Part shown: positions 1,338 through 25,441 of the stretch, piece after piece
Numbering within the stretch: position 1 is the stretch's first letter
Layout: each line of letters starts with the position of its first letter
Origin: Caulifigura coniformis
GTDB lineage: Bacteria; Planctomycetota; Planctomycetia; Planctomycetales; Planctomycetaceae
Length of the DNA: 64,000 bases
Assembly (NCBI RefSeq): GCF_007745175.1
Contig: NZ_CP036271.1
Location: 2,004,154-2,068,153 of the forward strand
Reading direction: 5' to 3'
Program-made: the position numbers and the translations under genes
The notes under the pieces: generated by a model
What the model saw: the letters and a program-made list of their open reading frames with translations, nothing else
What the model was told of the DNA's origin: nothing
The model's database searches: none

Positions 1338-2855
1338 TCACGGCAACTGTGGAAGGTTCTTGGACATAGCAATAAGTGAAGACGTCGGCCTGAAGATGCT
1401 CGCCTGTCGGGCGATGCTTCGTTCAATCCAGCTTGGCCACAGTGATCGGAAAGCCGCTTCTTCGACGCCAAGTTCTCGACAGAGTTCGGAGACCGCTTCT
1501 GCATCGGGCAACACGGATGAGATGATTCGGGTCATTGACCCCTTTCCACGCATGACGTCCATCAGGAAGGTTGGCGGAGCGGTGTGATTGTATCTGTCGA
1601 TCTCAGTTTTGCCGCTCTTGATGAACGCTGCCATGTCGGCCAAGGTCGCCAGTAACGAGTAGCCGGAGAGTGCGAGCTTGAATCGTTCGACGTCGGGGAA
1701 GAAATGCGTCAGCCAACTTTGTTCTTCCCACAGTGCAAACAACAACGTCCAACTTTCGGCCAGGTGGTTGTCCAGACTCTTAACCCATCCCATCAACTGC
1801 GGACTCGCGTAGACCTCCTGATAGAACGTCGATCCGGCTTCTGCGGGAACCTTCGTGTGGAGCAATCGCAGCGCGGACGCCCGATGACCGTCAGCAGTGA
1901 GCATGGCACCGGCGAAGTGGCTGTAGATGAAGGCAAGGGTCTGAGGCGACTCGATAACCCAAACCGTTCCTGCGCCCTTCCAGCCCGGTATCTCGACAAA
2001 GTCAAACAGCAATCCTCGCTGGTCTGTCAGTCGATCTTTCTCTGAGGCGATGCCGAGCATCCCCAACAACATGAGTGGGGCCGCACGAACGCAAGCGTTC
2101 TTTAGTCGAGTGAAAAGTTCCTCGTCAGACTCGCATCGCTTGTCGGCATCGGTACTCCACTGGAGCAATGACGCGAAGACATCACGACGGGTGTTCTGCT
2201 GAAGTCGCTTCCAGCCGAGCAAATCATTTACACGAAGCAACTGTTCCGCTCTCGCGAAGACGTCTTCGATGTTCGCCGATGCGCTGACGCTGACCAGGGC
2301 CGGACCGTCCGCGATGCGGATTGGGGATTCGGTCAGAAAGGGATTCGGCCCAATCGCCGGCTTGACGAGCGCCGGAGCCTTCAAAATGTCGCGGGCCAGT
2401 TCCTCAAGGCTTGTTCGGTAACTGGAGTCGTCTCGAAAATCGACATAGCGCCGGGTCCGAGCGAAGATCGGAACGGAGTCACCATCACCCGCCCGCAGCG
2501 CACAGACGAATTTGTCGGTGGCGATTTGCTTCGCGATTTCACTGGTGATGACCAGACGTTCGTAGCCAACTCCGCCTTGCCCTTCGTTCGCCTTTTGGGC
2601 ATAGGTCGGCGTGCAAATCAACAGAACACGATCCGCCTTCGTGATCCCCTGTTCCATGAACAGAGTCAATTCACTGCCGAGCGTTGTCGCCCATTGGTCG
2701 ATCTCCGCATTGATGCCGTTTTTGCGCAGGTCCACGGCAAGTTGTGCGGCCCATCGCTTATGTTCAGGCGATTCGTGGGTGTACGAAATGAAGACTGTGG
2801 GCGGCCCGTTTGGAGCTTCGGTTGCGGCGGCCGGCACATCTTGATCTTGGCTCAT
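1338..2855 (-). CDS. SEFIR (TIR-like) domain protein, candidate defence effector
   Basis: 505 aa. Residues about 17-170 look like a SEFIR domain, the bacterial TIR-like fold: PTVFISYTHESPEHKRW at the start of strand A, then AEIDQW, then ADRVLLICTPTYAQKAN and a conserved GVGYE(R) segment. The remaining 335 residues match no family that I know and are probably helical. The ATG lies inside the end of the upstream gene in an ATGA overlap at 2852-2855, so the two are almost certainly translated together. SEFIR and TIR domains act in bacterial immunity as NAD-cleaving or signalling modules; that role here is inference, supported by the nearby integrase. It could instead be a signalling protein with no defence role. 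Confidence 0.8.
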   Translation of the reverse strand: MSQDQDVPAAATEAPNGPPTVFISYTHESPEHKRWAAQLAVDLRKNGINAEIDQWATTLGSELTLFMEQGITKADRVLLICTPTYAQKANEGQGGVGYERLVITSEIAKQIATDKFVCALRAGDGDSVPIFARTRRYVDFRDDSSYRTSLEELARDILKAPALVKPAIGPNPFLTESPIRIADGPALVSVSASANIEDVFARAEQLLRVNDLLGWKRLQQNTRRDVFASLLQWSTDADKRCESDEELFTRLKNACVRAAPLMLLGMLGIASEKDRLTDQRGLLFDFVEIPGWKGAGTVWVIESPQTLAFIYSHFAGAMLTADGHRASALRLLHTKVPAEAGSTFYQEVYASPQLMGWVKSLDNHLAESWTLLFALWEEQSWLTHFFPDVERFKLALSGYSLLATLADMAAFIKSGKTEIDRYNHTAPPTFLMDVMRGKGSMTRIISSVLPDAEAVSELCRELGVEEAAFRSLWPSWIERSIARQASIFRPTSSLIAMSKNLPQLP

Positions 2856-3742
2856 TGTTCGTTACCAGAGTTGCGTTTCCTTAGCCGTCGTTGCCTTGGC
2901 GTCTCTACGATTCGTTCTTCATCTGAGTCGCCGTCGCAGATTTTCTTCAGTTGCCGCAAGAGCGTTCCCGGCGAGTAGAGAAGTTGTTGATTGTTCTCCA
3001 GGGCAATGGCCTGAGCAGCGGTCAACGTCACGCCAACGGTATTCTTTCGGCCGGCATCATCCGTTGTGACGACAACGAGGGCGGTCCCGCACTGGAAAGC
3101 GGCGTTGTCAAACTCTTTTGCCTTATCCGTCAACGTTGCAATGGCATTGGCCTGAATCTCGTTGATTTCGGCCTGCATTCGCTCCATGCCATGTAGTTCG
3201 GCGGCACGTTTCATCTTCCGGCCAACGTCCTTCATTTCTTCACTGGTCGCGATCTCCTTTGAGCGTGCGAACCATTTCTTGAACCATGATCCTTGCTGTG
3301 GCGGGAACTCATCGGCGACATCCAAGCCGAAGGCATCCAGTGTGTCATTGACGGCTCGTTCGACTTCGGCGACGGCTTCCGGGTCTTCACGATCGACATA
3401 CACACGGACCGGCAGGAACCGGTGGATACGAACTTCATCCAGGTCGATCCCCATGCTTTGGACTGCAAAGATGGCATGAGCGTCAGCCTGAAGTTGCTGA
3501 GTTGATGCCGCCAGGTTAGACAGCCGCTCATCGAGACTTCGGTACGCTTCCCTCGGATATCCAGGTCGCACCGCTGCGAGATATCGCAGGAAGCGTCCTA
3601 AACCATCACGTTCGAATAGGGGGCCAAGGTCAAACAACTCTTCAAAGACGTAGGGCGGCGCGTCGTAGTCCGACACCAACAGCGCGGCAACGATTGCTTC
3701 CAATCGTTTGATTCGAGCACGCAGTTCATCTTCTGCCGCCAC
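2852..3742 (-). CDS. Unrecognised partner of the SEFIR protein
   Basis: 296 aa from a GTG at 3742, chosen because GGGAG lies six bases upstream; the frame is open to 3862, but that extension has no such site. The N-terminus is helical (ELRARIKRLEAIVAALLVSD). The middle has a compact beta-alpha segment (RFLPVRVYVDREDPEAV) followed by DEFPPQQGSWFKKWFARSKE, then a long helix with a MERMQAEINEIQANAIATL core, and a charged tail. I cannot name the family. The stop overlaps the SEFIR start by four bases, which argues for a two-component system with this protein as sensor, adaptor or inhibitor. That role is inferred only from gene order. Confidence 0.75.
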   Translation of the reverse strand: MAAEDELRARIKRLEAIVAALLVSDYDAPPYVFEELFDLGPLFERDGLGRFLRYLAAVRPGYPREAYRSLDERLSNLAASTQQLQADAHAIFAVQSMGIDLDEVRIHRFLPVRVYVDREDPEAVAEVERAVNDTLDAFGLDVADEFPPQQGSWFKKWFARSKEIATSEEMKDVGRKMKRAAELHGMERMQAEINEIQANAIATLTDKAKEFDNAAFQCGTALVVVTTDDAGRKNTVGVTLTAAQAIALENNQQLLYSPGTLLRQLKKICDGDSDEERIVETPRQRRLRKRNSGNEQ

Positions 3743-3839
3743 GGATGGTCTCCCGCAAAGACGCCCAATTGAGCCAAAGCAACTGGTTTTCGGCCGGCTA
3801 CCAATATAGCCGGTGACGCCGTCCGATTCAGTGGATTCA

Positions 3840-3913
3840 CGGCGCAAAACGGCGCGCCGCAAATGACCGAAACCCGGCCAGGATCGACCGGGTTTCGGCG
3901 CAAAAACGGCGCG
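3840..3913. repeat. Direct repeat pair around a 10-bp hairpin
   Basis: CGGCGCAAAACGGCGCG at 3840-3856 recurs with one extra A at 3896-3913. Between them is a perfect 10-bp stem, CGAAACCCGG at 3868-3877 with CCGGGTTTCG at 3888-3897, and a 10-base loop. It lies directly behind the integrase stop and before the SEFIR operon. The stem could end integrase transcription, but no T-run follows on that strand. The repeats could also be recombinase or regulator binding sites. Confidence 0.5.
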
Positions 3914-20602: not shown

Positions 20603-20990
20603 CGGAACAACTCCCAGCGATGAATGGCCCCCTGAAACCCGCTGCTCCGTTGGCGGCTCGGGGCGACTGTTAACGTCCGTCCGGAACGTCCTGATCTGTC
20701 ATACGTGCTTGATGGCGTCCGTCACATCAACCCGGCCTGCTTCGGCCGGCCCACGATCGGGACGCCCCATTTCATCGGGAGGACGACCGCCAAAACGGTG
20801 ATCGATTTCCCCGGGTCGTGGGCGCGCCTGCGAAGTTTCGCCAACGCGCAGATCTTGCCACTCGTGCGGGGGCCCGGCGGTCGCGGCGTTCCACTGGTAA
20901 CAGTTGTTCCGCCAGCGCTGCCCAGAAGCGCGCAACCCTGAACGTAATACGAACGAACCGTATCAACGAACCACAGGGACGGAGGGGCTC
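20603..20990. other. Intergenic region upstream of the peptidase cassette
   Basis: 388 bases between divergent genes. Short frames exist on both strands but have unlikely composition. No riboswitch-like conservation was recognised. GGAGGGG at 20981-20987 is a ribosome binding site for the gene at 20991. Confidence 0.45.
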
Positions 20991-21689
20991 ATGGGCAGGA
21001 TGGGGGAAATGTCGAATTCCAGACGGTTTGCGCTCAACGGCGCGGATCTCAGGAAACTGGGGACGGGTTTGATGATTGCGCTCGTCGGTGCAGTCGCAAC
21101 GTTCCTGTCGGAGGTGGCCACGTCGCTCGATTTCGGCATCTGGTCGCCGTTCGTGTCGATGGGGCTCAGCGTGCTGGTCAACGCGATCCGCAAGTGGATC
21201 ACTGACAACTCGCCTCCCCCCGCCGCCAGCGCTGCGGCGTCACGACGGAAGCGACCGCGAAAATCCGCCGGCTGGACCATCGGGTCGGTCATTCTTGTCC
21301 TGACAGTGCTGACCGTCGGACTGATCAGCCTGGTCGCCCTCGTGGGATCGTTCGACGGCGAGCCCGATCAGACGACGCCGGACAACGTTCCGGCCGCCGA
21401 TCTCGATGCCGTGACGCGGACATTCGTGCTGCAGCGGCAGTTATTCGCACGCGTCTGCCTGGAAGCGGCGAAGCGGGAGCGGGCCGGGCTGATCTCAAGC
21501 GAAGAGGAAGAGAACGCGTGGTGCGAACCGCGCTGGGCGGCGGCACGCTCGGAGGCCTTCGGCACGCTCGCCGAATCGCGCGATCGCCAACTGCGTGACG
21601 GATGGACGCCCGCCGCGTCGGCCGCCGGACTCGAGGCCTGGGCCGTCGCTGCCGATCCTTCGCTTGCCGCGGAGGTGACTGGCCGATGA
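20991..21689 (+). CDS. Holin-like membrane protein of a peptidase cassette
   Basis: 232 aa. Residues about 20-65 (LGTGLMIALVGAVATFLSEV followed by a second hydrophobic segment ending VNAIRKWITDN) resemble small phage or GTA holins. A Pro/Ala/Arg linker, a further membrane helix (TIGSVILVLTVLTVGLISLV) and a soluble tail rich in Ala and Glu follow. The ATG at 20991 has GGAGGGG just upstream; another ATG at 21000 is possible. It overlaps the papain-like gene by four bases. The holin reading rests on shape only. Confidence 0.65.
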   Translation: MGRMGEMSNSRRFALNGADLRKLGTGLMIALVGAVATFLSEVATSLDFGIWSPFVSMGLSVLVNAIRKWITDNSPPPAASAAASRRKRPRKSAGWTIGSVILVLTVLTVGLISLVALVGSFDGEPDQTTPDNVPAADLDAVTRTFVLQRQLFARVCLEAAKRERAGLISSEEEENAWCEPRWAAARSEAFGTLAESRDRQLRDGWTPAASAAGLEAWAVAADPSLAAEVTGR

Positions 21690-22543
21690 GCACTCTCAAA
21701 CACGGCTATCGCCCGGATCTGGAAGACGTGTCCCACCTCGTGGCCACTTCAAGGCCGAGGGACTGGACGCAGCTTTACTCGGCGTCATGCGACCGGCCGC
21801 TCGATGAGAAGATCCGCGAGGCGATCAAGTCGCGGATCGTCGTCGAGGGGCAGGGGCGCACCAATTCCTGTGGAGGACACGCTGGCTCGACGATCGTCGA
21901 GTTCAACCGCTGGCTGGAATGCGGCCAGCTCGACCAGCGTTCGCGCTGGGCCGCCTACATCTGGGGGCAGGAGGAATGTGGTATCGATACGGACAGCGGC
22001 GTACAGATCGACGGCCTTTGCCGGGCCCTGAGTTCAAAGGGGCTTTGCGAAGACCGCCTCTGGAAGTTCACCGGCTCCTACCATCGCACGCCGGCCGGCG
22101 GGGCCGAGGCGCTGAGGCTCTGTCTCGAGAATGCGGCCGAGTGCCGATTGTCGAGCTGGGAGGTGCTGCGCGGCGGATATGCGGGCGTCGCGCAGTGGCT
22201 GCAAACGGGGCAGGGGGGAATCGTCGCCGCGGTTCCGTGGTACTCCAACTGGTACAGCGGCGTCAGTGAACTGCTTCCGACGCCCAATGGGGCTCCAGCG
22301 GGCTATCACGCCTATCCCCTGTTGTGGCTCACGGGCCGGATGCAGGGGGCGCGCTACTACGTCGAAGGTCCCAACAGCTGGACCACGTCGTGGGGCCGCG
22401 GGGGATGGACCGAGTGGTCCCCTTCTCTGATCGACTGGCTGTCCCGGCAGCCAGGCACACTGTTCGTCGGTCTGTCGGATCTGGATGGGGCCTCGACGAA
22501 GCCACGAGAGATCAATCGGCGGCGGTCCTGGTTCGCGACGTGA
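21686..22543 (+). CDS. Papain-like (C1) cysteine peptidase
   Basis: 285 aa without a signal peptide. The C1 catalytic layout is visible: Q56 and nucleophile C62 in GQGRTNSCGGHA, H208 in GYHAYPLLW, and N230 in GPNSWTTSWGRGGW, the usual His-Asn spacing with the conserved GxNSW..WG..G. Cys-rich surroundings (C35, C80, C98, C121, C146) suggest disulfides or metal. It probably cleaves protein or cell-wall peptide. Because it overlaps the holin-like gene, release through a membrane pore is conceivable but is inference. Confidence 0.85.
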   Translation: MSTLKHGYRPDLEDVSHLVATSRPRDWTQLYSASCDRPLDEKIREAIKSRIVVEGQGRTNSCGGHAGSTIVEFNRWLECGQLDQRSRWAAYIWGQEECGIDTDSGVQIDGLCRALSSKGLCEDRLWKFTGSYHRTPAGGAEALRLCLENAAECRLSSWEVLRGGYAGVAQWLQTGQGGIVAAVPWYSNWYSGVSELLPTPNGAPAGYHAYPLLWLTGRMQGARYYVEGPNSWTTSWGRGGWTEWSPSLIDWLSRQPGTLFVGLSDLDGASTKPREINRRRSWFAT

Positions 22544-22600
22544 CGGAATCACTCCGCGCCGTTGCGGGGATAGAGCGTTCGACTCTTGGAAGGAAGCATC

Positions 22601-23617
22601 ATGAAACTGTTCGTCTGCATTGGACTCTGCCTGGCGGCGTGCATGGGATGCGACGGCGATCAGCGCAGTCGCATCTTTGAGCGCGATCCGATCCTCGATG
22701 CGCCGCCGATTCCTGACGAAGTCCTGGAGCGCGTGCTCGCCGATCCAGAAGCGGTGCCGCGACGCGAGTCGACGGGCACAACGATTGAGCAGGCCATCGG
22801 AACGCTCGGCGAGAGACTCGGGATCGCTCTCTCAGAGGCCGCGACAGAGGCGCCGGCAGCCGAAGCATCTCGGGATCAGGTGAGGGTGGTGCTGGTCACG
22901 GCCGACTGGTGCACCTGGTGCAAGCCGGCGAAGGACAAAGCGATCCCCTGGCTGACATCGATGGGGTACAAGGTCGAGATTGTCGACGTGACGCGGCAAG
23001 CTCCGGACGGTCTCTCCTTTGTGATGCCCCGTTCGCTGCCGGCCTGGGTGTTCTTTCGAAACGGACGCGAGGTCTACCGACAGGAGGGAGGCTCCCTCCC
23101 CGAGCACCTGGCCGCGGCGGTCAAAAAAGTTCCACCAGTCGTCAGCCCCCCAGCGGTCAGCGCCTGGTTCGGCCCGACGCTCCGAGTCGCCGACGCCCTG
23201 CCGCTCGTGGCCGGGGTGTCGCTGAAGCTCGGCAGCGCGGCCACGGTCTCCGTGCCGGCCAACCTGAAATGGACCGTCTCGCAGAAGCCCGGATCCGTGG
23301 TGTTGTCGTTCGATCCAGCCCCGCAGGTCACCGTTCACAAGGTCCTGAACTGGCGGGTGCGTCTGGAGGGAATCGAGATCACGCCGACGTCAGTCTCGCT
23401 GCAGATCGACAACCTGCCCGATGTCACGGTGAAGTTGGACTGGAGCTTCCCGACGCGCAGTTCTGGAACGGACATCGACGCGGCCGATGACCTGCATCGC
23501 GCTGCGGCGCCGCTCCGTCCCCGGCCCGACCGGCCAGTCCTGAGATTCATCGGTCGTTCCGTACTGTTTGCGTACCGGGTCTGCACCGTCGCGTCGTTCC
23601 TGCTGGTCGTCGTTTAG
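22601..23617 (+). CDS. Thioredoxin-fold lipoprotein
   Basis: 338 aa. The ATG at 22601 follows GGAAGGA at a good distance. The lipobox LAAC places the lipid Cys at residue 14. Residues about 93-180 form a thioredoxin-like domain with active site WCTWC (C104, C107) and the cis-Pro region RSLPAWVFFRNG. The C-terminal 150 residues are beta-rich and unrecognised, ending in a hydrophobic stretch (ASFLLVVV). As an envelope thiol oxidoreductase or reductase it could act on the Cys-rich peptidase encoded just upstream, 57 bases away. Confidence 0.82.
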   Translation: MKLFVCIGLCLAACMGCDGDQRSRIFERDPILDAPPIPDEVLERVLADPEAVPRRESTGTTIEQAIGTLGERLGIALSEAATEAPAAEASRDQVRVVLVTADWCTWCKPAKDKAIPWLTSMGYKVEIVDVTRQAPDGLSFVMPRSLPAWVFFRNGREVYRQEGGSLPEHLAAAVKKVPPVVSPPAVSAWFGPTLRVADALPLVAGVSLKLGSAATVSVPANLKWTVSQKPGSVVLSFDPAPQVTVHKVLNWRVRLEGIEITPTSVSLQIDNLPDVTVKLDWSFPTRSSGTDIDAADDLHRAAAPLRPRPDRPVLRFIGRSVLFAYRVCTVASFLLVVV

Positions 23618-23731
23618 CGAGGGAATTTCATTGGACGTGAATCTCGATCGGACAACAGGTTGCGATCATTCCCGGAGACGCCTGAGATTTTCAATGAACC
23701 GAATCTCAGACTCCGTCGTCTTCTTGTGTGC

Positions 23732-23887
23732 AGCCTAATCCCGGGCGGACTGTCCGGGAGCGGGGGACCCACGTTGGAAGCGGCCAGCCGCTTCTCGGGG
23801 CGAAGGCCTCATTAGACAGGTCAGAGCACTTTCAAGCTCCAGCCCGACAGCTCACCCCGTCGGCGGCCGGACGATGGTCGTCCGGCC
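23732..23887 (+). promoter_or_regulatory. Cyclic di-AMP riboswitch (ydaO/yuaA type) with expression-platform hairpin
   Basis: The conserved ydaO blocks occur in order and with expected spacing: GCCTAATC at 23733-23740, GAGCGGGGGACCCA at 23758-23771, CGGGGCGAAGG at 23796-23806, a GAGC/GCTC stem around an ACTTTC loop at 23824-23839, and CCCGACAGCTCACC at 23843-23856 with GTCGGCGG after it. Directly behind is a perfect 10-bp hairpin (23865-23887, GGCCGGACGA stem) that can act as terminator or anti-sequestor, although its T-run is weak. In this class ligand binding normally lowers expression. The only gene downstream before a terminator is the small membrane protein at 24038. Confidence 0.85.
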
Positions 23888-24037
23888 ATTTGAAAGGGCC
23901 CTCGCGCGCCGTGCGCATCGCCCGAAAGCGTTGACGACGGGCGCTGCAGACGCGACGCGGCTGCGACAGCCGTTCCGAGGATGAATCGAACTCATGCCGC
24001 GGACCCGGCTGCTCAGGCGCCCCGAAGGGGTGCTGCC

Positions 24038-24319
24038 ATGCTGTTAGTTCTCTCGATGTGTGGATATCCGATTGATGGTCTGACGCAGAGTACGGTGCTG
24101 GCGATCAACGAAGTGGCCAAGGCCAATCAGTCTGTCGCCCAGGGGTATCTGGCCGTTGGCCTTTCTGTGGCTTTGCTGGTGTGGATCTGTGCGATCTGTA
24201 TTCACCGCCTCAGCCGGGCAACCGCCGACAGGGACCGGTTCGATGTGGCAGCGTCCGGACGCATTCGCTCGCGTTCGGCAGAGTGTTTTCTCGCGGCAGT
24301 CAATTCGGGTGGGCGCTGA
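24038..24319 (+). CDS. Small orphan membrane protein under riboswitch control
   Basis: 93 aa from the ATG at 24038, which has GAAGGGG eight bases upstream; the frame is open to an ATG at 23981. The N-terminus is mildly hydrophobic (MLLVLSMCGYPIDGL), then a polar stretch, one clear membrane helix (GYLAVGLSVALLVWICAICI) and a basic/Ser-rich tail. No family is recognised. It is the sole gene between the c-di-AMP riboswitch and the bidirectional terminator at 24333, so it is the likely target. Its role may be in osmotic, potassium or cell-wall control by analogy with other targets, which is inference. Confidence 0.6.
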   Translation: MLLVLSMCGYPIDGLTQSTVLAINEVAKANQSVAQGYLAVGLSVALLVWICAICIHRLSRATADRDRFDVAASGRIRSRSAECFLAAVNSGGR

Positions 24320-24332
24320 CTGCTGCGACCAG

Positions 24333-24363
24333 GCCACCCGGCGAATGGGATTCGCCGGGTGGC
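24333..24363. terminator. Bidirectional terminator hairpin, 14-bp stem
   Basis: GCCACCCGGCGAAT (24333-24346) pairs perfectly with ATTCGCCGGGTGGC (24350-24363) across a GGG loop, followed by TATCTTG. It lies between convergent genes that end at 24319 and 24377. Confidence 0.85.
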
Positions 24364-24376
24364 TATCTTGCGCGTC

Positions 24377-25441
24377 TCACGCGGCTGGGACGCCGCTTGC
24401 TCTGAGGACCGATTCCTGTACCAGCAGGTCGTGCTCGGGGGTCCATTCCGGGGCCAGCTCCCCCCCGATGATCTTCGCCAGAGCGCGGAACTCTTCGTCG
24501 TAGCGACCGCCAGGCTTCGGCAACGTCACGTCCTGCCAGCCCCGCTTGTATCCGTCCCGTGGCGTCAACAGCGCAAGACGCAAGGCAGGGGGTTCGAGCG
24601 GCGCGATGGCAATCGTCCCCTCTTCACCACAGACAGTGAAGTGTCGCCGCTCGCCGCCAAAGGGCTCGAGCATCGAACTGCGGATCGTGGCCGTCGCCCC
24701 CGGATACTCGAAAACGGCCAGCTGATTGTCGGCCAGCGAGTCGCGTTCAGGATGCGTGGTGCGGCTAAATGGAGCAATGCGGTCCGGCCGGCCCATCACG
24801 GTTGTCAGCGAGTCGATGAGATGGCATCCGAGTTCGAACATCGATCCGCCAGGATATTCGGCGAGCCCTCTGCGCTCCGCAGGCCCGATCTGCTTGCTCA
24901 TCACAGCGTGAACTTCGAACACCTGCCCAAGCCAGCCTTCGCGAACCGCCTGATAGAGAAACCGGAAGGCGGGGTTGTAGCGGAACATGTAGCCCATCTG
25001 GACGACGACCTTCTTCATCCGGGCCGCATCGAGAAGCGCCCTGAACTGGGCTAGGGATTCGCCAGCCGGCTTATCGAGGTGAACATGCAGTCCCGCGTCG
25101 ACGCACCGCCGGGCCGTGGGGACGAGGTTGCGGACCTCCGTTTCAATGGCAACCGCCTTGAGTCCAGGCGTGGCGAGAAGTTCCGCTTCCTCAAGCCAGC
25201 GCACTCCCACATAGGCCTTTTCGCGTTCGGCCCGGGCCCGGCGTTCCCTGTCCGGCTCGACGATGCCAACGACCTCGAACTGGTCGGACAGCTTGCGCAT
25301 CGTGGAAAACTTGCCCGAGGCGTGTCCGTGGCCCGTCCCGATCTGGCCGACCTTGATCCGGGGCGGGGACGGCTCGTCCGCGAAAGCCAGCGGAGCCCAT
25401 GCGGCCAGGGCGGATGCAGCGAGAAAGTCGCGACGAAGCAT
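24377..25441 (-). CDS. Tat-exported Gfo/Idh/MocA family oxidoreductase
   Basis: 354 aa from the ATG at 25441, which gives a twin-arginine signal (MLRRDFLAASALAAWAPLAF). The NAD(P)-binding Rossmann part follows (IKVGQIGTGHGHA, VVGIVEPDRE), then the family motif HVHLDKPAGES containing the catalytic Lys, and the C-terminal alpha/beta domain (MFELGCHLIDSLTTVMG). Such exported oxidoreductases are abundant in planctomycetes and act on sugars or sugar-derived compounds; the substrate here is unknown. It is transcribed alone and ends at the shared terminator 24333-24363. Confidence 0.88.
   Translation of the reverse strand: MLRRDFLAASALAAWAPLAFADEPSPPRIKVGQIGTGHGHASGKFSTMRKLSDQFEVVGIVEPDRERRARAEREKAYVGVRWLEEAELLATPGLKAVAIETEVRNLVPTARRCVDAGLHVHLDKPAGESLAQFRALLDAARMKKVVVQMGYMFRYNPAFRFLYQAVREGWLGQVFEVHAVMSKQIGPAERRGLAEYPGGSMFELGCHLIDSLTTVMGRPDRIAPFSRTTHPERDSLADNQLAVFEYPGATATIRSSMLEPFGGERRHFTVCGEEGTIAIAPLEPPALRLALLTPRDGYKRGWQDVTLPKPGGRYDEEFRALAKIIGGELAPEWTPEHDLLVQESVLRASGVPAA

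What the first reader, a model, noticed from the sequence alone, without database searches (positions are those of the whole stretch)
23732..24319. c-di-AMP riboswitch controlling an orphan membrane protein
All conserved ydaO blocks are present in order, ending in the nearly invariant CCCGACAGCT segment. The sole downstream gene encodes a 93-aa membrane protein of no known family before a strong terminator. Known targets are potassium transporters and cell-wall enzymes, so this may be a new class of c-di-AMP target and shows that this lineage uses c-di-AMP.
Basis: partly seen in the sequence, partly recalled or inferred. Interest (0 to 1): 0.75.

Follow-up and report, generated by a model that had tools for sequence, protein, structure and literature searches.

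The report
c-di-AMP riboswitch that lost its gene
A real RNA switch for the bacterial messenger c-di-AMP sits here in front of what looks like only the first stub of a gene, and in related planctomycete bacteria the same kind of switch often stands before a large membrane-organising protein that we found linked to this messenger in no paper we could search.

Summary
The riboswitch is real: Rfam RF00379 matches window 23722-23881 (+) at 61.3 bits (cut-off 38), the only hit in the 6.76-Mb genome, which also encodes a DacZ-type c-di-AMP cyclase. Relatives bound the RNA better as 23733-23896, with a covarying hairpin inserted before the known 3' pseudoknot strand.

The 93-aa ORF is not a conserved new target: nothing in 170 family genomes resembles it beyond chance. 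In relatives the largest group of these riboswitches precedes a ~750-aa SPFH/Band_7 protein: 23 of 45 hits in the family, at least 38 of 94 in a class sample. The hairpin-inserted form goes with SPFH genes. The window has that form, lacks this SPFH family, and its ORF starts like the SPFH gene behind the most similar riboswitch (MLLVLSMCG / MLLLLQMCG). Codon usage looks coding only to about codon 50-56. Most likely the SPFH gene was truncated, leaving its membrane anchor; G166 shows a clearer truncation.

Searches showed no paper on this link. Ligand binding and expression platform are untested.

The parts
23722..23881 (+). Rfam RF00379 match (c-di-AMP riboswitch aptamer)
   Evidence: 61.3 bits, gathering 38; only hit in the genome
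23733..23864 (+). conserved aptamer core, closed by P1 (23733-23735 with 23862-23864)
   Evidence: structure counted on 14 sequences, the three P1 pairs kept in 14 of 14
23829..23835 (+). loop strand of the pseudoknot (CTTTCAA)
   Evidence: pairs with 23890-23896; 99% of cells paired over 14 sequences, one of seven pairs with changes on both sides; 3 of 200 shuffles of the downstream stretch do as well in the window
23865..23887 (+). hairpin inserted between P1 and the 3' pseudoknot strand, 8 pairs
   Evidence: 95.5% of cells paired, 6 of 8 pairs with changes on both sides
23890..23896 (+). 3' strand of the pseudoknot (TTGAAAG)
24017..24033 (+). 7-bp hairpin just before the ATG whose 3' arm holds the GGGG that could serve as ribosome-binding site
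   Evidence: seen in the sequence and in the predicted fold of the leader; the leader as a whole folds no better than shuffles, z -0.06
24038..24319 (+). 93-aa ORF with one membrane stretch near residues 37-55 (by eye, no predictor run); probable leftover 5' end of an SPFH gene
   Evidence: start-anchored match to the G036 SPFH protein, BLOSUM62 38 over 9 aa against a maximum of 17 in 349 control N-termini; codon signal gene-like to about codon 50-56, absent after; no Pfam match over cut-off, no NCBIfam match
24333..24363 (.). perfect 14-bp inverted repeat between the ORF and the convergent GFO/IDH/MocA oxidoreductase gene
   Evidence: sequence; oxidoreductase by Pfam; not called a terminator by the scan

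Best explanation
Window 23733-23896 is a c-di-AMP riboswitch of a planctomycete subtype that carries an extra hairpin before its pseudoknot strand. Its ancestral job was to control a ~750-aa SPFH/Band_7 (stomatin/flotillin-like) membrane protein. In this genome the body of that gene has been lost; about the first 50-56 codons (start plus membrane anchor) remain, read through into about 37-43 unrelated codons, giving the 93-aa ORF. Shown here: the RNA, its structure, its commonest target in relatives, the absence of this SPFH family from the genome. Inferred: truncation rather than an unrelated small gene; binding of c-di-AMP; and that binding lowers expression, as in known cases, perhaps at translation, since no terminator-like site was found between aptamer and start codon.
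For: RF00379 61.3 bits. 23 of 45 riboswitch hits in 170 family genomes precede an SPFH gene; 38 of 94 hits in 397 class genomes lie just upstream of one on the same strand; 44 of the best 80 SPFH loci from named genomes carry it. Pseudoknot strand behind the inserted hairpin, at +38 to +43, in 22 of 25 SPFH-linked aptamers, at +36 in the window, but in 1 of 17 aptamers with other targets, G130. Nearest aptamer is that of G036, 63%, and the ORF start matches the G036 SPFH start far above 349 controls. No member of this SPFH family in G000 by profile, while the same profile rang in 31 of 170 genomes. Codon signal fades near codon 50-56. G166 has a truncated SPFH start behind its riboswitch, 37 bits, E 8e-11.
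Against: A profile of SPFH N-termini does not recognise the ORF (4.1 bits, E 1.5; 1 of 379 control ORFs scores higher). DNA similarity to G036 is seen only at the very start (codons 1-9 z 4.0; codons 1-56 z -0.1; leader z 2.4). No flank of the site is shared with an SPFH-bearing locus, so the empty site was not seen. The aptamer shows no decay, odd for a switch without a gene unless the loss is recent. The tail of the ORF could still be coding: 17 of 615 48-codon stretches inside genes of the window score as low, and the whole ORF is borderline (0.145 bits per codon; 6.2% of gene windows lower, 5.6% of spurious ORFs higher). SPFH genes also occur without it: 29 of the 80 SPFH-bearing class genomes have no riboswitch hit.
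Confidence: 0.7

Rival explanations
1. The 93-aa ORF is a genuine small membrane protein, derived from the SPFH anchor or recruited from elsewhere, kept and regulated by c-di-AMP.
For: Riboswitch intact, among the highest-scoring of the SPFH form (61.3 bits); first 45 codons gene-like, 0.36 bits per codon against 0.39 in genes; start codon and a hydrophobic stretch in place.
Against: No relative in 170 family genomes including the one congener held; second half not coding-like.
Confidence: 0.2
2. One reading: an unrelated orphan membrane protein is a new class of c-di-AMP target.
For: It is the first gene-like ORF between the riboswitch and the inverted repeat; no known family.
Against: Start of the ORF matches the SPFH gene of the nearest riboswitch relative; aptamer form goes with SPFH genes; not conserved.
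Confidence: 0.07
3. The RNA has drifted to another ligand while keeping the fold.
For: Extra hairpin, and the variant CCCGACAGCTCACC shared with G036; no binding data.
Against: Core segments kept between SPFH-linked and other members; the genome has a DacZ-type cyclase gene; TrkH K+ transporters are targets in the same family.
Confidence: 0.05

Closest known systems
ydaO/yuaA (kimA-type) c-di-AMP riboswitch, RF00379
   Same: Full-length match to the Rfam model; conserved helices and a pseudoknot between terminal loop and 3' tail. The pseudoknot of the solved ydaO RNA is mentioned in passages of PMC5393176
   Different: A covarying hairpin of 23 nt lies between P1 and the pseudoknot strand; in the 108-nt solved ydaO sequence printed in PMC5393176 the pairing strand follows P1 directly (my reading of that sequence). 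Commonest target in this family is an SPFH gene
C. glutamicum nlpC c-di-AMP riboswitch (PMC9960051, passages read)
   Same: c-di-AMP riboswitch without canonical terminator, reported to act on translation; the same platform type is plausible here
   Different: Target there is a cell-wall peptidase gene; mechanism here untested
SPFH/Band_7 proteins (PF01145; stomatin, flotillin, HflK/C)
   Same: The relatives' target: N-terminal hydrophobic anchor and Band_7 domain, at 308-514 of 734 in one of three proteins scanned
   Different: About 300 residues before the Band_7 domain match no Pfam family in the three scanned; no NCBIfam family in the one scanned; no PDB relative by sequence profile; no conserved partner gene seen

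Membership tests
RF00379 c-di-AMP riboswitch | covariance-model score over the gathering cut-off | tested here: met
   61.3 bits against 38
RF00379 c-di-AMP riboswitch | conserved helices with compensatory change among relatives | tested here: met
   14 sequences, 49 pairs: 96.3% of cells paired, 24 pairs changed on both sides, 0 of 500 shuffles reach any of the five measures
RF00379 c-di-AMP riboswitch | pseudoknot from loop to 3' tail | tested here: met
   7 pairs, 99% of cells, but 5 of 7 pairs never vary; strand at a constant place in 22 of 25 SPFH-linked aptamers
RF00379 c-di-AMP riboswitch | binds c-di-AMP | not testable with these tools
   needs in-line probing or calorimetry
RF00379 c-di-AMP riboswitch | organism makes c-di-AMP | tested here: inconclusive
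   a gene with DAC domain (86.2 bits) and DacZ_P sensor domain is present; synthesis itself was not tested
RF00379 c-di-AMP riboswitch | expression platform | tested here: inconclusive
   no terminator-like site by scan of 23400-24500; hairpin at the start codon, but the leader folds no better than shuffles
SPFH/Band_7 protein (the 93-aa ORF as a member) | Band_7 domain | tested here: not met
   no Band_7 match; the one Pfam line, MTABC_N 13.7 bits, is below its cut-off of 29.1; only the start is comparable, so it is a putative remnant, not a member

The most novel reading that the evidence does not exclude
A hairpin-inserted subclass of c-di-AMP riboswitch wires c-di-AMP to an SPFH membrane protein in several families of the class, so that the messenger of turgor and potassium also sets membrane organisation; and in this species that protein has been reduced to a regulated 93-aa membrane anchor that still does something.
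Probability: 0.18. Interest if true: 0.7.

Novelty: new variant of a known kind. Interest (0 to 1): 0.52.

Why it matters
Reported c-di-AMP riboswitch targets are largely ion, osmoprotectant and amino-acid transporters in Bacillales and Clostridia and cell-wall genes in Actinobacteria (PMC9960051, passage). A stomatin/flotillin-like membrane protein as a leading target in at least six families of one planctomycete class would tie c-di-AMP to membrane organisation and makes that link directly testable. The window itself is a warning: the ORF next to an intact riboswitch can be a leftover, so a target should be named only after looking at relatives.

Tried and rejected
Synteny: four neighbours of the window ORF were not found in any of 47 other riboswitch loci. 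In 18 kb around the one shared DNA match of the congener G001, only the L25-like gene and one weak match (E 6e-7) to ORFs of window 15000-40000 were found. So the empty site could not be shown by flanks.

SPFH remains in other frames of 23600-24500: only weak tblastn matches, E 0.002 or weaker in the part of the output that I printed (first 3000 characters), on either strand; taken for noise.

N-terminal profile of SPFH: does not recognise the ORF; told as evidence against. Among its 379 control ORFs of the window is the longer form of the same ORF. Leader comparison with G036: z 2.4.

Expression platform: compared the 45 bases before the start in 44 loci and folded the window leader; no common motif could be argued. 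In some rows the start chosen by the script is clearly wrong (inside the RNA), so no count was drawn from it.

Partner genes beside SPFH: the largest cluster of similar neighbouring ORFs covers 8 of 44 loci.

Structure of the SPFH protein: AlphaFold mean pLDDT 46.3, too poor; no fold search was made. Two proteins behind other riboswitches had no PDB relative.

The hypergeometric p (51 genomes with both, 16.9 expected) is not used as proof, since related genomes are not independent.

Full report
Check of the observation. cmscan of the 64-kb window against Rfam 15 gives two hits, a tRNA and RF00379 at 23722-23881 (+), 61.3 bits, gathering score 38, E 9e-12. RF00379 in the window's whole genome (G000, 6.76 Mb, one contig, 99.9% complete) gives this place only. 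The genome has one DAC-domain match, 86.2 bits, in a 308-aa protein with an N-terminal DacZ_P domain; beside it is an ORF that I recognise from memory as an Obg-type GTPase. DAC domains are found in 155 of 170 genomes of the family and riboswitches in 41 of 170 (with filters that lose some weak matches), so the cyclase is the general feature and the riboswitch the patchy one.

Anatomy of the RNA. An alignment of 14 sequences (A2: the window, 12 SPFH-linked RNAs, and G130, which precedes a permease) was folded and a structure with pseudoknot was counted on it. 96.3% of cells form standard pairs, 24 of 49 pairs have changes on both sides, and none of 500 shuffles reaches any of the five measures; slid versions give 35-51% paired. 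The structure was drawn from this same alignment, which favours it over the slid versions. One helix (window 23865-23872 with 23880-23887) is a hairpin between P1 and the 3' pseudoknot strand, with changes on both sides in 6 of 8 pairs. In the pseudoknot (23829-23835 with 23890-23896) 5 of 7 pairs never vary and one has changes on both sides, so in A2 its support is pairing and constant place more than covariation; in the wider alignment the two strands differ together, for example in G051, G165, G185, G186 and G188. The pseudoknot is a known feature: PMC5393176 prints the 108-nt ydaO sequence and speaks of its pseudoknot (passages); in that sequence the pairing strand follows P1 directly. In the window 46 of 49 pairs form.

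What stands behind this riboswitch in the family. In 170 genomes 45 hits in 41 genomes were found. Of the 45: 23 are followed by a gene for an SPFH/Band_7 protein (tblastn; Band_7 by Pfam in three sampled proteins, one of them from outside the family), of which two run off the contig (G036, G132) and two are interrupted (G171, G185); 1 by a truncated one (G166); 3 by TrkH (G025, G026, G094); 8 by an amino-acid-permease-type protein (seven by tblastn; G130 by Pfam); 5 by a membrane-like protein that starts alike in all five (by eye), 637 and 656 aa in the two unbroken frames, without Pfam match in the one scanned (G064 twice, G066, G145, G159); 1 unclear (G113); 3 too near a contig end (G034, G103, G131); and the window. 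Several of these genomes are fragmented, so interruptions may be assembly errors.

In the class. In a sample of 397 genomes, 94 hits in 84 genomes were found, two of them below the curated cut-off, and the SPFH profile rang in 80 genomes. 38 of the 94 hits lie just upstream of an SPFH match on the same strand, 21 of the 38 outside the family. By the coordinates the distance to the nearest match is 90-466 nt; four values of 803-873 in the printout are to a second fragment. The linked genomes belong to six families (f1, f3, f4, f5, f11, f13). 51 genomes have both (16.9 expected by chance if genomes were independent, which they are not); 13 of the 51 are not linked in these lists, some because a contig ends; 33 have only the riboswitch and 29 only the SPFH gene. 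What the other 56 hits precede was looked at only within the family and for G043 and the like, so no rank of targets is claimed for the class.

Named genomes. A scan for the SPFH protein found 152 relatives and kept the best 80. A covariance model of the subtype finds the RNA in 44 of 80, always before the gene on its strand, the same 44 as a strict sequence motif. Four of the 80 have under 450 nt upstream. The model was trained on some of the same records (L098 is the G032 contig by length and coordinates), so this is not an independent count. The 44 include records named Fimbriiglobus (L137), Aeoliella (L153), Schlesneria (L136, L138, L141) and Planctomicrobium (L169); the records named Singulisphaera (L130, L134, L152) and Aquisphaera (L157) lack the RNA. 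Neighbouring ORFs are shared by at most 8 of the 44 loci.

Two forms. In each of 48 aptamers I sought the stretch that pairs with the terminal loop. It sits 38-43 nt after the AGCT segment in 22 of 25 SPFH-linked RNAs; in the other three (G051, G061b, G172) the script's best match is elsewhere, but the strand stands at the usual place in the alignment, in G172 with a mismatch. Of 17 RNAs with other targets (3 TrkH, 9 permease-type, 5 of the 637-656-aa protein) 13 have it at 12-16, three have chance-level matches elsewhere (G059, G145, G162) and one, G130, has it at 40. Single matches are weak: in many of the 13, 5-6 pairs are reached by 34-164 of 200 shuffles; the argument is the common place. 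The window has it at 36 (3 of 200 shuffles), G166 at 40. So the window's RNA is of the SPFH form.

The 93-aa ORF. Pfam gives nothing over cut-off, NCBIfam nothing. In 170 family genomes the best match besides itself is E 5.7e-4, 43% over 55 residues with two stops inside, chance level for so many genomes. No member of the SPFH family is in G000: a single-protein search was empty (no positive control) and the profile search was empty while ringing in 31 of 170 genomes. The aptamer most like the window's is that of G036, 63%. The G036 SPFH protein starts MLLLLQMCG, the window ORF MLLVLSMCG; the anchored BLOSUM62 score over 9 residues is 38, the best of 26 SPFH starts (next 11), against at most 17 in 349 ATG-started ORFs of at least 150 aa from 47 loci and the window, real and spurious, 153 of them hydrophobic at the start. 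Codon usage trained on window genes scores 0.36 bits per codon in the first 45 codons (93-codon windows of genes: 0.39, sd 0.15), -0.06 in the last 48, -0.49 in the 19 codons between the upstream ATG and 24038, and 0.145 over the whole ORF, which is borderline (6.2% of gene windows lower, 5.6% of 142 spurious ORFs higher). The cumulative maximum is at codon 50 and 20-codon windows stay positive up to 37-56, about where the hydrophobic stretch ends and where SPFH proteins go on with RYIPNN-VGVVEKLW. Against this, the SPFH N-terminal profile gives only 4.1 bits, DNA similarity fades after 9 codons, and no flanks are shared. The anchor is among the least conserved parts of the SPFH proteins themselves, so lack of similarity there is weak evidence.

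A second truncation. G166 has a 166-aa ORF with an SPFH start behind its riboswitch, 37 bits, and no SPFH body in the 3.7 kb that follow, while five congeners (G163, G165, G168, G170, G172) have the gene there. G166 is a fragmented genome and has another SPFH copy.

How it most likely works. c-di-AMP riboswitches are described as off switches, by termination in B. subtilis and by translation in C. glutamicum (PMC9960051, passages). No terminator-like site was found between aptamer and start codon. A 7-bp hairpin at 24017-24033 holds the only G run in the 20 bases before the ATG. I infer, without test, that c-di-AMP binding lowers translation of the downstream gene. For relatives this means that c-di-AMP, which elsewhere shuts K+ uptake, also sets the level of an SPFH membrane protein of unknown function. 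[quoted passage not shown]

Literature. c-di-AMP + riboswitch + planctomycet: one paper, on LytTR systems, by its listing unrelated. c-di-AMP riboswitch, SPFH, flotillin, stomatin, band 7, any two: 495 papers, none of the 20 listed holds the riboswitch term. riboswitch + flotillin: 10 papers, 9 listed, none on this by listing. riboswitch + SPFH: one, on mitochondria. riboswitch + planctomycet: 32, 20 listed, none on c-di-AMP by listing. The library holds only openly licensed papers; the original c-di-AMP riboswitch paper and a structure paper were not held, so a mention there cannot be excluded. A figure legend in PMC6741144, on c-di-AMP in Haloferax, includes sequences of Planctomycetales, I take it in a tree of cyclases (one passage).

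Verdict. The riboswitch is solid; the orphan protein as a new target class is not; a truncated SPFH gene is the best reading at about 0.7. The link of a riboswitch form to SPFH genes is well supported by counts and is the interesting part.

Noticed in passing
L068 (G166:C1534:1-5000), riboswitch 3674-3849 on -: Second, clearer case of an SPFH gene truncated behind a riboswitch; the genome has another SPFH copy elsewhere.
   Followed up: partly
L082 (G130:C517:1-2400), riboswitch 1142-1298 on -: SPFH-form aptamer in front of an amino-acid permease: looks like a swap of the target gene.
   Followed up: partly
L052:1783-3750 (+), and hits in G064 (two), G145, G159: A 637-656-aa protein, by eye with many membrane stretches, behind a usual-form c-di-AMP riboswitch; the one scanned (L052) has no Pfam family and no PDB relative.
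   Followed up: partly
L023:6736-8529 (+): Permease-type protein with a C-terminal universal stress protein domain behind a c-di-AMP riboswitch.
   Followed up: no
L002:1027-1953 and 2143-3219 (+): The genome's DacZ-type diadenylate cyclase gene stands just before what looks, from memory, like an obg GTPase gene.
   Followed up: no
window 20988-23617: Three tightly packed genes upstream of the riboswitch: two without Pfam match and a thioredoxin-like one just below its cut-off.
   Followed up: no
L130, L134, L152, L157 (records named Singulisphaera, Aquisphaera): Members of the same SPFH family without the riboswitch upstream.
   Followed up: no
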